Shown here piece by piece: positions 18,120 through 34,068 of a DNA stretch of 64,000 bases. A program made the translations under genes and the position numbers. The notes beneath the pieces were generated by a model. That model was not told the DNA's origin, made no database searches, and saw only the letters and a list, made by a program, of their open reading frames with translations. Source of the stretch: Acidobacteria bacterium RIFCSPLOWO2_12_FULL_68_19 (lineage in GTDB: Bacteria; Acidobacteriota; Vicinamibacteria; Vicinamibacterales; UBA2999); the NCBI GenBank assembly GCA_001767525.1, contig MELF01000041.1:16402-80401 (forward strand). The letters run 5' to 3'. The stretch's first letter is position 1. Every line of letters starts with the position of its first letter.

Positions 18120-18317
18120 GTGCGCCACGGATCCTTGACCCGTCTGGTGCTTCTGACCGTGGCCGGCGCGGCGGCCAGAGTGTTCTATACGTGGCTCCTC
18201 TCGGGTCCTTCGAAGGCGTCAGCCTCCGTGGACGACACACTGGACGCCTCGTTCCCTGCCAGCGACCCGCCCTCGTGGACATCGACGACGGCGGGAGCTG
18301 GAATCATTCGCCGCTGA
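18120..18317 (+). CDS. Small membrane protein with SFPASDPPSW motif
   Basis: 65 residues from a GTG at 18120, with GAGGA (overlapping the upstream stop) as ribosome site. One hydrophobic segment (LTRLVLLTVAGAAARVFYTWLL) is followed by VDDTLDASFPASDPPSWTST. The D-x-x-L-x-x-S-F-P-A-S-D-P-P-x-W motif recurs in many very short bacterial proteins of unknown function, usually near stress genes. Likely cotranscribed with the DUF5670-type gene. It overlaps the end of the convergent gene at 18304 by 14 bases. Confidence 0.7.
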   Translation: MRHGSLTRLVLLTVAGAAARVFYTWLLSGPSKASASVDDTLDASFPASDPPSWTSTTAGAGIIRR

Positions 18318-25938: not shown

Positions 25939-26013
25939 CCCGCGACCCTGGCGGCGCGCGACGCGATGCGGTTCGCCGGTCTCCCCGCAAGCGCCGCCAC
26001 CCGTCGTGCGAGA

Positions 26014-26697
26014 ATGTCTCCGGTGCCACCGAAGAAACAGTCCCATCCCCCAGCTCTGCCGCTCCCTCCCTTCGATCTCCAGGCCTTCCTCGATTCGGCT
26101 GGTGTCGCGCGCACCATTTGCAAGTACGAACGGTCGGCCGTGATCTTTTCACAGGGCGACGCGGCGGCCGACGTGTTCTACATCCAGAACGGCAGCGTGA
26201 AGCTGTCCGTCCTCTCACGCACCGGCAAAGAAGCCGTGGTCGCGGTCCTGGGTCAGGGTGACTTCTTTGGAGAGGGCTGTCTCGCGGCGCAGCCGCGGCG
26301 CATGGCGACCGCGTCCGCGATGAGCACGAGTACGGTGCTCGTCATCGAAAAGCCGCAGATGCTCGAGGTGCTTCACACCCAGACCGCGCTGGCCGAGCGG
26401 TTCCTCGCGCACATGCTGGCGCGAAACATTCGCGTGGAGGAGGACCTCGTCGATCAGCTGTTCAACTCGAGCGAAAAGCGGCTCGCGCGCGTCCTGCTTC
26501 TCCTGGCCCGCTACGGGAAGGCCGATCGACCGCTCCCCATTCCCAAGATGTCGCAGGAGACGCTGGCCGAGATCGTGGGCACGACCCGGTCGCGCGTCAA
26601 CGTCTTCATGAACAAGTTCCGTGACCTCGGATTCATCGAGTACAACGGCGACATCAAGGTGAACAGTTCCTTGCTCACCGTTGTCCTGCACGATTGA
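26014..26697 (+). CDS. Crp/Fnr-family transcription regulator (paralog 1)
   Basis: 227 residues from ATG 26014; an in-frame ATG at 25966 would add 16 residues. Cyclic-nucleotide-binding fold with VIFSQGD, VFYIQNGSVKLSV, FFGEGCLA and RRMATASA, a long dimer helix (LVDQLFNSSEKRLARVLLLLARYG) and a C-terminal winged helix (SQETLAEIVGTTRSRVNVFMNKFRDLG). No FNR-type Cys cluster. The ligand is unknown. Nearly identical domain by domain to the paralogs at 31156 and 33391. It follows groEL on the same strand. Confidence 0.92.
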   Translation: MSPVPPKKQSHPPALPLPPFDLQAFLDSAGVARTICKYERSAVIFSQGDAAADVFYIQNGSVKLSVLSRTGKEAVVAVLGQGDFFGEGCLAAQPRRMATASAMSTSTVLVIEKPQMLEVLHTQTALAERFLAHMLARNIRVEEDLVDQLFNSSEKRLARVLLLLARYGKADRPLPIPKMSQETLAEIVGTTRSRVNVFMNKFRDLGFIEYNGDIKVNSSLLTVVLHD

Positions 26698-27079: not shown

Positions 27080-28699
27080 CTACGATGCGTCGGCACCTTC
27101 GCTGACCAGGCGGATCAGGTGATCCGGGTCGACGGGCTTCACGAGGTGATAATCGAACCCGTGGTCCGACGAGCGTTTCGAGTCGCCAGAAGAATCGTAG
27201 CCACTCAGGGCGAGCAGCAGCATCCCGCGGCCGTGCGGCTCCTCACGAATCCGCCTGGCAACCTGGTAGCCGTCCATGATGGGCAGGCTGATGTCGATGA
27301 TCCCTACATCGGGACGCACGACGTTCACGAGCTCGAGGCCGCGAACGCCGTCGGCGGCGGCGTAGACCACGTGCCCGGCGAGCTCGATCATCATTCGCAA
27401 CATCTGGCGTGCGTCTGCGCTGTCCTCTATCAGAAGCACGCGTCTCGGCTTCGCACGACATTCCGGCGGGAATGAGATGGCAGGGTTGCTGGCCGAAGGA
27501 GTTTGCCTCAGTCGGACGGTGAACCGGCTTCCGCGCCCTTCTCCCTCGCTCGACGCCACGATCGTGCCCCCGTGCAGCTCGACAAGGCGGCGGACGAGCG
27601 TCAGGCCGATCCCGAGGCCGCCCTGAGCGCGGTCGAGTGTCCGACCGGCCTGCACGTACATCTCAAAGATGAAGGGCAGCAGCCTGGGCGAGATGCCACA
27701 CCCCGTGTCCTCGACGCTCAGTACGGCGTCGCTGCCGTCAGCTCGGAGTGCCACCCGAATCCGCCCGCCTGGCGGCGTGTACTTGACCGCGTTGGTCACG
27801 ATGTTGGTCAGCACCTGCTCGAGCCGCATGGCGTCCCCATCGACCCACACGGGCTCGGTGCTGATGTCGACGTGGCGATCCAACCGGGCATCGCCGGTGA
27901 CAATGGCGACGGCTCGGCGTACCACCTCGGCCATGTCGAGCGGCTGTCGATTCAGTCGGATCCTTCCGGAGACCACGCGCTCAACGTCGAGCAGATCGTT
28001 GATCAGACGGGAGATGTGGCCGACCTGTCGCGCGATCACCTCATGCGCGCGGGCCGCGGGTTCCCCTTCGGCGTGCGTCACCTCGAGCACTCGGACCGCA
28101 TTGCTGATCGCGCCGAGCGGATTGCGCAGCTCGTGGGCCAGCATCGCCAGGAACTCGTCTTTCGTGCGGTTGTCGCGCTCGGCGCGGTCGCGGTTGCTGT
28201 TGGCCTCGAGGAGCTCGCTGAGATCCGTCACGATCAGATTCCGGCGGCGATCGCCATTCGTCGACCCGGTTGGGGTGAGCGACAGACTCACCTCGAAGGC
28301 GCCAGAATCCGAGCCGATCAAGCGGCTGCGACGCCTTCCGCTGCCGGCACTCAGCAGGCTCTCAAAATCCTCCCTGTCAGACGGGTTGACGAATCGGCCC
28401 ATGCGACTGCCGACCACCGACTCGAGCGGTTCGCCTACCAGCGCCGCGAACCGTGCGTTGGCGTACAGAATCTCGCCGCCCTTCGTGAGGACGACCGCGC
28501 CTTCCTGCATCTCTTCGACGAGGTGGCGGTACGGCTCATCGGCGCTGTGCAGCGTGTAGACTTGATTGCCGCCGGCGTCTTCGACGACCAGCGCGTCGAT
28601 CTCGCCCTGCCGAATCGCCCGCAGCATCTCCTCGGCCTCGGCGAGGCGCACGCGCAGCGTCTCCGCCTCGTCGTAGTGATCAGCCTGGCGTGTGATCAT
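27080..28699 (-). CDS. PAS-containing hybrid histidine kinase with C-terminal receiver
   Basis: 539 residues, soluble. N-terminal coiled coil (AETLRVRLAEAEEMLRAI), PAS domain at about 55-165 (GAVVLTKGGEILYANARFAALVG), HisKA with phospho-His189 (FLAMLAHELRNPL), ATPase domain at about 285-400 (NIVTNAVKYTPPGG, DTGCGIS, GGLGIGLTLV), and receiver at about 420-537 (LLIEDS, Asp469 in IIDISLP, VKPVD). Being downstream of kaiC-kaiB-kaiB, it resembles the kinases that read KaiB/KaiC state in non-cyanobacterial Kai systems. The ribosome site is formed by the end of a 21-base G run, the only purine-rich element before ATG 28699. Confidence 0.93.
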   Translation of the reverse strand: MITRQADHYDEAETLRVRLAEAEEMLRAIRQGEIDALVVEDAGGNQVYTLHSADEPYRHLVEEMQEGAVVLTKGGEILYANARFAALVGEPLESVVGSRMGRFVNPSDREDFESLLSAGSGRRRSRLIGSDSGAFEVSLSLTPTGSTNGDRRRNLIVTDLSELLEANSNRDRAERDNRTKDEFLAMLAHELRNPLGAISNAVRVLEVTHAEGEPAARAHEVIARQVGHISRLINDLLDVERVVSGRIRLNRQPLDMAEVVRRAVAIVTGDARLDRHVDISTEPVWVDGDAMRLEQVLTNIVTNAVKYTPPGGRIRVALRADGSDAVLSVEDTGCGISPRLLPFIFEMYVQAGRTLDRAQGGLGIGLTLVRRLVELHGGTIVASSEGEGRGSRFTVRLRQTPSASNPAISFPPECRAKPRRVLLIEDSADARQMLRMMIELAGHVVYAAADGVRGLELVNVVRPDVGIIDISLPIMDGYQVARRIREEPHGRGMLLLALSGYDSSGDSKRSSDHGFDYHLVKPVDPDHLIRLVSEGADAS

Positions 28700-28705
28700 C
28701 GCCGC

Positions 28706-29077
28706 CTACCCCCCCCCCCCCCCCCCCCCGTGTTGGTCAGAAGACCGAACGAGGTCGAGTCCAAGGAGCACGCGATCGCGGTTCGACATGTCGCCAATGA
28801 TCCGGCGCATCGGCAGCGGCAGCTTCTTGACGAGGGTCGGGGCCGCGATGATCTGCTCGCCCTTCACGAGGACCGGCTGCTGATAGATGTCGACGACTTC
28901 GAGATCGTACCGCCCCTCGAGATACTCGTCGCAAATCGCCTGCAGGTTCTTGACCGCGCGCGCCGATCGGGGCGTCATGCCTGTGACGTACAGCCGAAGG
29001 ACGTACCGGTCCGCCGGTGGTATTTGAGCGGCCCGCTCGAATGCCGCACGGGCGCCGTTGCGCTCCTTCAGTGTCAT
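28706..29077 (-). CDS. kaiB: KaiB-like protein with poly-glycine tail (copy 2)
   Basis: 123 residues. Thioredoxin-like KaiB domain: YVLRLYVTGMTPRSARAVKNLQ, LEVVDIYQQPVLVKGEQIIAAPTLVKKLP, IIGDMSNRDRVLLGLDL. About 20 N-terminal residues precede the domain. The protein ends His followed by seven glycines, encoded by 21 consecutive G bases (28729 to 28709 on the minus strand), then TAG. The kinase ATG is in the same frame two codons after that stop. KaiB family members switch fold and bind KaiC. The start codon has only a weak ribosome site and is 6 bases from the previous stop. Confidence 0.9.
   Translation of the reverse strand: MTLKERNGARAAFERAAQIPPADRYVLRLYVTGMTPRSARAVKNLQAICDEYLEGRYDLEVVDIYQQPVLVKGEQIIAAPTLVKKLPLPMRRIIGDMSNRDRVLLGLDLVRSSDQHGGGGGGG
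28709..28729. repeat. 21-base homopolymer (C on plus, G on minus)
   Basis: Positions 28709-28729 are all C. On the coding minus strand this is G21, spanning the last seven codons of the second kaiB and ending 9 bases before the kinase ATG. Such tracts are classic slipped-strand mutation sites. The exact length should be treated with care because sequencing miscounts long homopolymers. Confidence 0.9.
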
Positions 29078-29083
29078 CGCTGT

Positions 29084-29404
29084 CTACCGGCGTTCCTGCA
29101 AGTCCAGCCCGACGAGAACGCGTTCCGTGTTCGAGAGGTCGCCGATGATCTTCTTGATCGGTTCCGGCAGCCGTCGCACGAGCGTGGGCACGGCCAGGAT
29201 CTGGTCGCCGCGTGCGAGCTGTGGATTCTTCAAGAGGTCGATGATCTCGATCTCGTAGCGCCCCTGCAGATGGTCCTCGCAGATCTGCTTCAGGTTCGTG
29301 AAGGCCAGGACCGATTTCGGCGTCTGTCCCGCGACGTAGAGCCGTAACACGTACGCCTTGGCTTCCGGCGACGACGTGGCGAGCCGGTCCTCAGACAACT
29401 GCAT
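29084..29404 (-). CDS. kaiB: KaiB-like protein (copy 1)
   Basis: 106 residues from ATG 29404 (AAAGGA about 11 bases upstream); ATG 29443 would add 13 residues and lengthen the overlap with kaiC. KaiB signature: [77 protein letters not shown]. It overlaps the kaiC stop (29391) by 14 bases, so the two are coupled. The family binds KaiC and promotes dephosphorylation; in non-cyanobacteria it often takes part in stress adaptation. Confidence 0.93.
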
Positions 29405-30911
29405 GGCGATCGCGTCCTTTCCGCGCACCGTGTCGGGAGTCATCCGGTGTTCCGTGCGAAGCGGCGTCGAACAGGTTCAATCCGTGATCGGTCAGCACGA
29501 ATTCGCGAAGCTCGTTCGAATGCGCCATGCCGCGGGACTTGAGCACGTACAGCCCGCGGCGATGCTCGCCACCGATCTCATCGTTCGCCAGCACGATCCA
29601 GGTGTCCATCAGCGACGAGATGGTCGTCTCGGTGCGCTCGATGTCGGTCTGCCCGGGCGTGAGACTCGTCAACATCGCCGTGATGTTCTCGGTCTTCAGA
29701 TGATCGATCATGCGCGTGAGCATCGCCTGGACGTCGGCGTAGGTCCCCACCGTCATCAGGTTGGTCACCGGGTCGAGGACGACCACGGTTGGCCTGAAGT
29801 CCGCCACGACCTGGTGCATCGTGACGAGGTGTGTCTCGAGCCCGTACCGCGACGGTCGGTCCGCATGGAACTGGAGCAGTCCGCCTGCCACCCACGGCTC
29901 GAGGTCGATGCCGATGGAGCGCATGTTCCGGAGGAGCTGCTGCGGCGACTCCTCGAAGAGAAAGCACAGGCAGCGTTCGCCCCGGCGGCAGGCCGCGTCG
30001 AGAAAGTGGGCGGCCAGACTCGTCTTCCCGGTGCCGGCGGTGCCGGAAACAAGGATCGTGCTTCCGCGGTAGTACCCTTTGCCGCTGAGCATCCCGTCGA
30101 GATGTTCGACGCCAGACGACACGCGTTCCAGCGGAGCCTCATGCTGCAGTGCCAGGGAAGAGACCGGCAGCACGCCGATGCCGGAGCCGTCGATCAGGAA
30201 CGGATACTCGTTCGTGCCGTGGTGGGAGCCGCGGTACTTGACGACGCGGAGGCGGCGCGTCGACACCTGGTCGTGGACGCGGTGGTCGAGCAGGATGACG
30301 GCATCCGAGACGTACTCCTCGAGCCCCTGCTTGGTCAGCTGGCCTTCGCCACGCTCGCCCGTGATCACGGCGGTGACGCCCTTGTCTTTCAGCCATCGGA
30401 ACAAGCGTCGCAACTCCGCCCGGAGGATGGCGTCGTCCTTGAGGCCCGCAAAGAGTGACTCGATGGTGTCGAGGACGACGCGCTTGGCTCCTACGCTCCG
30501 AATCGCGTAATCGAGCCGGACGAACAGGCCTTCGAGGTCGTACTCGCCCGTTTCCTCGATCTCGCTGCGTTCCACGCGCACGTAGTCGACCGCCAGTTTT
30601 TGCGCCTTGATCAACTCCGGAAGGTCGAACCCGAGCGACACGACGTCGCTGGCAATCTCCTCGGCGTTCTCCTCGAACGTCATGAGCACGCCGGGTTCGT
30701 CGAAATGGACGGCGCCGTTCACCAGGAAGGTAATGGCCAGCAGGGTCTTGCCGGATCCCGGCCCGCCGCAGACGAGCGTCGGCCGCCCTTTTGGCAACCC
30801 GCCACGCGTGATCTCGTCCAAGCCACGGATTCCGGTGAGCGTCTTCGCCAGCTCGCGGCCGCGCGGCAGACCGGGCAACACGCCGACGCCCTCGCTCTTT
30901 TGTTTTTCCAT
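29391..30911 (-). CDS. kaiC: KaiC-like double RecA ATPase
   Basis: 506 residues from ATG 30911. Two KaiC domains: CI with Walker A GGPGSGKT (about 49-56) and catalytic TFEEN; CII with Walker A GTAGTGKT (about 290-297) and LFEES. The autophosphorylation pair equivalent to Ser431/Thr432 of Synechococcus falls at ISSLMDTW, i.e. Ser-Ser, with a Thr retained at the 426-equivalent position (TETTISS). It may therefore autophosphorylate. No kaiA is visible. It heads the minus-strand operon kaiC, kaiB, kaiB, hybrid kinase, winged helix, divergent from a Crp/Fnr gene. Confidence 0.95.
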
Positions 30912-31155
30912 ATAATGTGCCCGCCGCGAGACGAGTTCAGAGGGCACTTTGACAGCTCGTCGGCCTCCAAGCTGTTAAATATTGGACAGTGCTTGATCCG
31001 CTTGATTTGCGCAGGGTTGCGGCCTGCGATAGCCAAGGACATCGCAAAGGCGTGGTCCTCGGGTAATTACCGGTCCTCGCACCGTGTTCGCGCTGGAGGG
31101 ACGACCTGGCGGCGTGTGGCGCGCGTTGATAAAATGGCGATAGGAGGTGGACGAA

Positions 31156-31881
31156 ATGGCCGAATACCACGGCGAGTTCGCCCCCCGTGCGACAATCGAC
31201 GGCACCCTCATGAGACGAAAGACACGATCCGTCGAACCCAAGACACGGCGCGGATTCGATGCGGAGGCGTATCTCGAATCGACAGGCCCGGCGCGAAAAA
31301 TTGTAAAGTATCGACAGGGAGCGGTCGTCTTCTCACAAGGCGGCCCCGCCAATGACGTCAGGTACCTCCAGAAGGGCGCGATCAAGGTCTCGGTGCTCTC
31401 CCGTATCGGCAAGGAGGCGGTCGTCGCGATACTGGCGCCCGGCGACTTTTTCGGCGAGGGCGCCCTGGCCGGTCAATCGGTTCGCATCGAGACGGCGACG
31501 GCGATGACGGCGAGCAGCGTGCTGATCATCGAAAAGGACGCGATGGTCCGGCTGCTCCGAGAGGAGCCTCTGTTCGCGAGCCGCTTCATCTCCCACATGC
31601 TGACCCGGAACATTCGCATTGAAGCGGACCTGGTCGACCAGCTCTTCAACTCGAGCGAAAAGCGCCTCGCTCGGACGCTGCTGTTGCTGGCGCGCTACGG
31701 CCAGGCCAATCCCCAGCGGACGCTGCCGAAGATCTCGCAGGAGACGCTCGCGGAAATGATCGGCGCGACCCGTTCACGCGTGAACTTCTTCATGAACAAG
31801 TTCAGGAAGCTCGGGCTCATCGAGTACAACGGCGGCCTCAAGGTCAATAGCTCCCTCCTCAGTGTCGTCCTGCACGACTGA
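31156..31881 (+). CDS. Crp/Fnr-family transcription regulator (paralog 2)
   Basis: 241 residues; ATG 31156 has TAGGAGG 8 bases upstream. Cyclic-nucleotide-binding fold (AVVFSQGGPANDVRYLQKGAIKVSV, FFGEGALAG), dimer helix (LVDQLFNSSEKRLARTLLLLARYG) and winged helix (SQETLAEMIGATRSRVNFFMNKFRKLG). It carries about 15 extra N-terminal residues compared with the other two copies. It is divergent from kaiC across a 244-bp gap that contains a TTGACA at 30949, so it may control, or be controlled together with, the Kai operon. Confidence 0.92.
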   Translation: MAEYHGEFAPRATIDGTLMRRKTRSVEPKTRRGFDAEAYLESTGPARKIVKYRQGAVVFSQGGPANDVRYLQKGAIKVSVLSRIGKEAVVAILAPGDFFGEGALAGQSVRIETATAMTASSVLIIEKDAMVRLLREEPLFASRFISHMLTRNIRIEADLVDQLFNSSEKRLARTLLLLARYGQANPQRTLPKISQETLAEMIGATRSRVNFFMNKFRKLGLIEYNGGLKVNSSLLSVVLHD

Positions 31882-33380: not shown

Positions 33381-33390
33381 AGACCCGGTG

Positions 33391-34068
33391 ATGGAGATCG
33401 CAACGAAAGCGGCACGCAAGCGAACGCAGGCGCTCCCTGCGTTCGATCTGCTCGCCTCCCTCGATTCCGCCGGCGCGCCTCGCAGCGTCACCAAACACCC
33501 CCGCGGGGCCGTCGTTTTCTCGCAGGGCGATCCCGCCACCGACGTGTTCTACCTCCGGCAGGGGAGCGTCAAGCTCTCGGTACTGTCGCAGACGGGCAAG
33601 GAGGCCGTCGTGGCTATCCTGAGGCCGGGCGAGTTCTTCGGCGAGGGGTGCCTGGCGGGGCAGCCGCGGCGCATGGCGACCGCCCGGGCGCTGAACGCGA
33701 GCACGGTGTTCGTCATCGAAAAGTCCCACATGCTCACGTTGCTGCACACGCAGCCCTCGCTGGCCGAGCGGTTTCTCTCCCACATGCTCGCCCGCAACAT
33801 CCGGATCGAGGAGGACCTGATCGATCAGCTCTTCAACTCGAGCGAGAAGCGGCTCGCGCGCGCCCTGCTCCTGCTGGCGCGCTACGGCACGAAGGACGAG
33901 TCGCTCCTGCTGCCGAAGCTGTCGCAGGAGACGCTTGCCGAGATCGTCGGCACGACCCGCTCCCGTGTCAACTTCTTCATGAACAAGTTCCGGGATCTCG
34001 GCTTCATCGGGTACAACGGCAGCATCACGGTCAACCGCTCCCTCCTGACCGTGGTCCTGCACGACTGA
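33391..34068 (+). CDS. Crp/Fnr-family transcription regulator (paralog 3)
   Basis: 225 residues from ATG 33391 (GTG 33388 adjacent). Same build as paralog 1: AVVFSQGDPATDVFYLRQGS, FFGEGCLAGQPRRMATARAL, LIDQLFNSSEKRLARALLLL, SQETLAEIVGTTRSRVNFFM, TVVLHD C-terminus. It is followed after 3 bases by a small histidine kinase and then by an NtrC regulator, forming one regulatory operon. The ligand is unknown. Confidence 0.92.
   Translation: MEIATKAARKRTQALPAFDLLASLDSAGAPRSVTKHPRGAVVFSQGDPATDVFYLRQGSVKLSVLSQTGKEAVVAILRPGEFFGEGCLAGQPRRMATARALNASTVFVIEKSHMLTLLHTQPSLAERFLSHMLARNIRIEEDLIDQLFNSSEKRLARALLLLARYGTKDESLLLPKLSQETLAEIVGTTRSRVNFFMNKFRDLGFIGYNGSITVNRSLLTVVLHD

What the first reader, a model, noticed from the sequence alone, without database searches (positions are those of the whole stretch)
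28706..28732. 21-base G tract exactly at the kaiB/kinase junction: candidate phase-variable or translation-tuning switch
On the coding strand G21 gives seven glycines at the end of the second KaiB, then TAG, then two codons, then the in-frame ATG of the hybrid kinase. Worked out by frame: with 21 G, KaiB ends at TAG; with 20 G it reads through to a TGA overlapping the kinase ATG (ATGA-type coupling); with 22 G it gains about nine residues and stops inside the kinase gene. The G run is also the only Shine-Dalgarno-like purine stretch before the kinase. Length changes would therefore alter both the KaiB tail and kinase translation. Homopolymers of this length are hypermutable in bacteria (known from contingency loci).
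Basis: partly seen in the sequence, partly recalled or inferred. Interest (0 to 1): 0.7.

Follow-up and report, generated by a model that had tools for sequence, protein, structure and literature searches.

The report
Doubtful 21-G run before clock kinase
A run of 21 G between a KaiB clock gene and a sensor-kinase gene is present in this assembled genome, but its length is probably inflated by assembly: the nearest relative has only 8 G there, the genome's only other long run is demonstrably false, and no length change would switch the kinase off.

Summary
It cannot be composition: the 4.2 Mb genome has about 24 runs of 8, three of 9, none of 10-20, then this one and a C25 beside an N gap.

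That C25 lies in smc and is false: 11 of 11 relatives have ordinary coiled coil there. In the family, 13 of 17 inspected runs of 12 or more lie at contig ends or gaps. Two complete genomes of the order never exceed 10.

The place is genuine: an ortholog in another genus has G8 at the same junction, with kaiB2 stop and kinase start overlapping as ATGA. Best reading: a short ancestral G tract, SD-like for the kinase, whose length of 21 is unreliable.

A switch is not supported. The kinase frame and the 9-nt distance from run to ATG are the same at every length; the KaiB domain stays whole; and the 21-G geometry (TAG-6 nt-ATG) is identical at the neighbouring kaiB1/kaiB2 junction. Raw reads would decide.

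The parts
28709..28729 (-). G21 homopolymer (C21 on +), seven Gly codons in the assembled frame
28706..28708 (-). TAG stop of kaiB2 in the assembled (3n) frame
28700..28705 (-). GCGGCG spacer between kaiB2 stop and kinase ATG; same 6-nt spacing as at kaiB1/kaiB2 (29078-29083)
28706..29077 (-). kaiB2, 123 aa, KaiB domain at residues 28-108; variable tail after GLDL
   Evidence: Pfam PF07689 E=3.6e-26; alignment
27080..28699 (-). hybrid sensor kinase, 539 aa: PAS, HisKA, HATPase_c, C-terminal receiver
   Evidence: Pfam; 76% identical ortholog in G013
29084..29443 (-). kaiB1, 119 aa as listed; by comparison with G013 probably starts at the ATG at 29404
   Evidence: Pfam PF07689 E=9.5e-28
29391..30947 (-). 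kaiC (double ATPase), first gene of the operon
   Evidence: Pfam PF06745 E=1.4e-105, two stretches

Best explanation
The kaiB2/kinase junction carries a genuine but short ancestral G tract (8 in the nearest ortholog; true length here unknown). It lies in the variable tail of KaiB2 and in the kinase's translation-initiation region, where it can act as an SD-like element at a fixed 9-nt distance from the ATG, with the kaiB2 stop close enough for ordinary translational coupling. The assembled length of 21 is probably inflated by sequencing or assembly at a G homopolymer. Shown: homologous position, length difference, frame outcomes, fixed spacing, a false run elsewhere in the same assembly. Inferred: the SD role, the coupling and the inflation.
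For: Ortholog G013 (= L061, MEKU01000049.1) has TTCTGACCAGACC-G8-TAGGCG-ATGATCAC against TTCTGACCAACAC-G21-TAGGCGGCG-ATGATCAC here. G013 has only 22 runs of 8 or more in 4.2 Mb, so coincidence at one junction is about 1e-4. The only other run of 10 or more in G000 is a C25 beside 38 N in smc, absent from 11 of 11 relatives, which have an ordinary 35-residue coiled-coil stretch there. No runs of 10-20 in G000. The complete genomes G037 and G049 (14 Mb) reach only 10. 13 of 17 inspected family runs of 12 or more sit within 100 nt of a contig end or at an N gap; in IMG/VR 66 of 86 exact G21 runs lie within 300 nt of a stretch end or gap. Run-to-ATG distance is fixed at 9 nt and SD-like pairing is -9.7 kcal/mol against -5.7 without the run.
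Against: Unlike the smc run, this one is internal, both flanks continue as orthologous sequence up to the run, and no N gap adjoins it, so reads may have spanned it. A short G tract is a natural substrate for real slippage expansion. Some relatives also have internal long runs (G30 in G029 C2, C13 in G006 C6), though these are drafts too. Exact-21 runs show no excess in IMG/VR (104, 86, 62 stretches for 20, 21, 22), so a simple k=21 assembly collapse is not indicated.
Confidence: 0.6

Rival explanations
1. A real, slip-expanded and hypermutable G tract of about 21. Length changes shift the KaiB2 tail and the stop position (-9, overlapping, or +18 relative to the kinase start), and a G-quadruplex in the mRNA may damp kinase translation: tuning, not on/off.
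For: Same site has G8 in another genus, so the length has changed and its frame class with it. Flanks are clean and internal. Folding with G-quadruplexes allowed is much more stable at G20-22 (-72 to -75 kcal/mol) than at G8 (-27) (long-stack energies are extrapolated).
Against: Kinase frame and SD spacing do not depend on length, and KaiB domain is intact in all frames. No other run of 10-20 in the genome, and complete relatives stop at 10. The assembly's other long run is false. No population data.
Confidence: 0.3
2. The whole run is spurious: the true sequence has no G tract, and the contig was closed through low-quality poly-G reads.
For: The smc C25 in the same assembly arises at a site where relatives have no run at all.
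Against: The ortholog has G8 at the same place with matching flanks on both sides; chance about 1e-4.
Confidence: 0.08

Closest known systems
Homopolymeric-tract phase variation / contingency loci (e.g. poly(A) in inlA; Orsi et al. 2010, PMC2831843)
   Same: A homopolymer at a gene junction whose length can change reading frame; in inlA the tract varies about 1,000-fold above point mutation (that paper's abstract).
   Different: Here no length puts the kinase out of frame or breaks the KaiB domain, the tract is at a 3' end rather than the 5' end, and no within-population variation is shown. That paper found poly(G) and poly(C) tracts generally underrepresented.
kaiBC operons with a histidine kinase outside cyanobacteria (Rhodobacter sphaeroides; PMC5520375)
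   Same: kaiC and kaiB lie with a histidine kinase gene in one cluster.
   Different: Two kaiB copies and a PAS-HisKA-HATPase-receiver hybrid kinase; a G tract at the last junction, shared only with G013 among the loci seen.
False homopolymers and breaks in draft short-read assemblies
   Same: Long G/C runs concentrate at contig ends and gaps; the smc C25 of this genome is such a case.
   Different: This run is internal and a shorter homologous run exists in a relative.

Membership tests
SSR-mediated phase-variable (contingency) locus | Tract far longer than composition predicts | tested here: inconclusive
   21 against a maximum of 9 elsewhere, but the length may be an artefact
SSR-mediated phase-variable (contingency) locus | Length change switches a gene off or on | tested here: not met
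   Kinase frame and KaiB domain unaffected for 5-12 and 17-25 G
SSR-mediated phase-variable (contingency) locus | Length differs among relatives | tested here: inconclusive
   8 in G013 against 21 here, if 21 is true; G035 has no tract
SSR-mediated phase-variable (contingency) locus | Length mixture within one population | not testable with these tools
   No raw reads available
Assembly artefact | Lies at a contig end or N gap | tested here: not met
   Internal, clean flanks; the sister run C25 does meet it
Assembly artefact | No counterpart in relatives | tested here: not met
   G8 at the homologous site in G013; only the excess length lacks a counterpart
kaiC-kaiB operon with histidine kinase | KaiC, KaiB and histidine kinase domains in adjacent co-directional genes | tested here: met
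   Pfam PF06745, PF07689 twice, PF00512 and PF02518

The most novel reading that the evidence does not exclude
The 21-G tract is real and hypermutable, and its length tunes, through a KaiB2 tail and mRNA structure or stop-start geometry, how much output kinase is made from a Kai operon in an uncultured acidobacterium: a mutational dial on a clock-like system.
Probability: 0.1. Interest if true: 0.6.

Novelty: new member of a known kind. Interest (0 to 1): 0.2.

Why it matters
If real, it would be an unusually long G homopolymer beside a KaiB gene and could make clock-output dosage heritable but changeable. More likely it matters as a caution: long G/C runs in draft assemblies of this family gather at assembly breaks, and one run in this very genome is false, so homopolymer 'switches' need read support.

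Tried and rejected
Assembler collapse at k=21: exact G20, G21 and G22 runs in IMG/VR decline smoothly (104, 86, 62 stretches), no excess at 21. SD tuning by length: rejected, since the run's 3' end stays 9 nt from the ATG. KaiB2-kinase fusion by frameshift: no length gives one. Closest genome (G001, same genus): no KaiB match at E <= 1e-15, so no same-genus length. Genome-contig scan: only the 76% ortholog and two relatives of about 48%, which have no G tract. Plasmid search: kaiC-kaiB relatives, no tract information. Papers on poly-G assembly artefacts: nothing usable found in three searches.

Full report
OBSERVATION. The window has 21 C at 28709-28729. On the coding strand this is G21, seven Gly codons at the end of kaiB2 (28706-29077), then TAG, GCGGCG and the kinase ATG at 28699. 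The operon is kaiC, kaiB1, kaiB2, hybrid kinase (PAS, HisKA, HATPase_c, receiver), by Pfam.

CHANCE. G/C runs fall off about fivefold or more per base: 379, 81, 10, 1, 1 for 5 to 9 in 430 kb. In the whole 4.2 Mb genome there are 28 runs of 8 or more, 4 of 9 or more, and of 10 or more only this one plus a C25 at C8:68685-68709 (the flanked pattern misses the run beside the N gap). Composition does not explain 21.

ARTEFACT TEST. The C25 abuts a 38-N gap inside smc. All 11 relatives read there, one of the same genus at 80% identity, have an ordinary coiled-coil stretch of 35 residues and no C run. That run is therefore false. In the family, of 17 distinct runs of 12 or more that I inspected, 13 lie within 100 nt of a contig end or at an N gap; the internal ones are this run, G029 C2 (G30), G006 C6 (C13) and G064 C48 (C12). 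In IMG/VR, 66 of 86 exact G21 runs lie within 300 nt of a stretch end or gap. Two single-contig genomes of the same order, 14 Mb in all, have eight runs of 9 or more, the longest 10. So a length of 21 is suspect. A simple collapse at k=21 is not indicated.

HOMOLOGY. The tract's place is nevertheless real. The nearest ortholog (G013 = L061, MEKU01000049.1, Acidobacteria bacterium RIFCSPLOWO2_02_FULL_67_21; kinase 76% and kaiB2 77% identical; third codon positions 68-69% identical) has G8 at the same junction with matching flanks on both sides, and its kaiB2 stop overlaps the kinase start as ATGA. G013 has 22 runs of 8 or more in 4.2 Mb, so coincidence is about 1e-4 (inference). G035 (49% identity) has no tract: its kaiB2 ends ...GGTGGACTGACGTCATG. 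Other KaiB genes of the order also lack it. The operon is patchy: KaiB in 14 of 162 genomes, none in G001 of the same genus.

FUNCTION. The run lies upstream of the kinase ATG, so its length cannot shift the kinase frame; its 3' end is always 9 nt from the ATG, so SD spacing does not change. It does pair better with an assumed anti-SD (-9.7 against -5.7 kcal/mol without the run; -11.7 in G013). KaiB2's domain ends at residue 108 and tails beyond GLDL vary freely among relatives. The assembled geometry, TAG-6 nt-ATG, is identical at kaiB1/kaiB2 (TAG-ACAGCG-ATGA), so it is a normal coupling arrangement, not an off state. What could change with length is the KaiB2 tail, the stop position and a G-quadruplex in the mRNA; all are untested.

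VERDICT. Observation confirmed as sequence; the switch reading is not supported; the length of 21 is probably inflated (0.6), with a real expanded tract the main rival (0.3). Raw reads would settle it.

Noticed in passing
G000:C8:68685-68747 (L029 4986-5048): smc is broken in the assembly by a false C25 and a 38-N gap; relatives have 35 ordinary coiled-coil residues there.
   Followed up: yes
window 25966-26697, 31147-31881, 33388-34068: Three similar Crp/Fnr-type regulators (cNMP_binding plus HTH_Crp_2) lie around the kai operon and groES/groEL-like genes; a local paralogous set.
   Followed up: partly
window 29404-29443: kaiB1 as listed starts inside kaiC; comparison with G013 suggests the true start is the ATG at 29404.
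   Followed up: partly
G029:C2:111189-111218 (L070 1501-1530): An internal G30 in a Gly-rich stretch followed by QSQDMIFF-like codons, perhaps the linker of a single-stranded-DNA-binding protein.
   Followed up: no
G000:C13 about 18219-18277 (L131): A 59-N gap inside tandem GTGCGAGGGTGCGTCCGAGG-like repeats.
   Followed up: no
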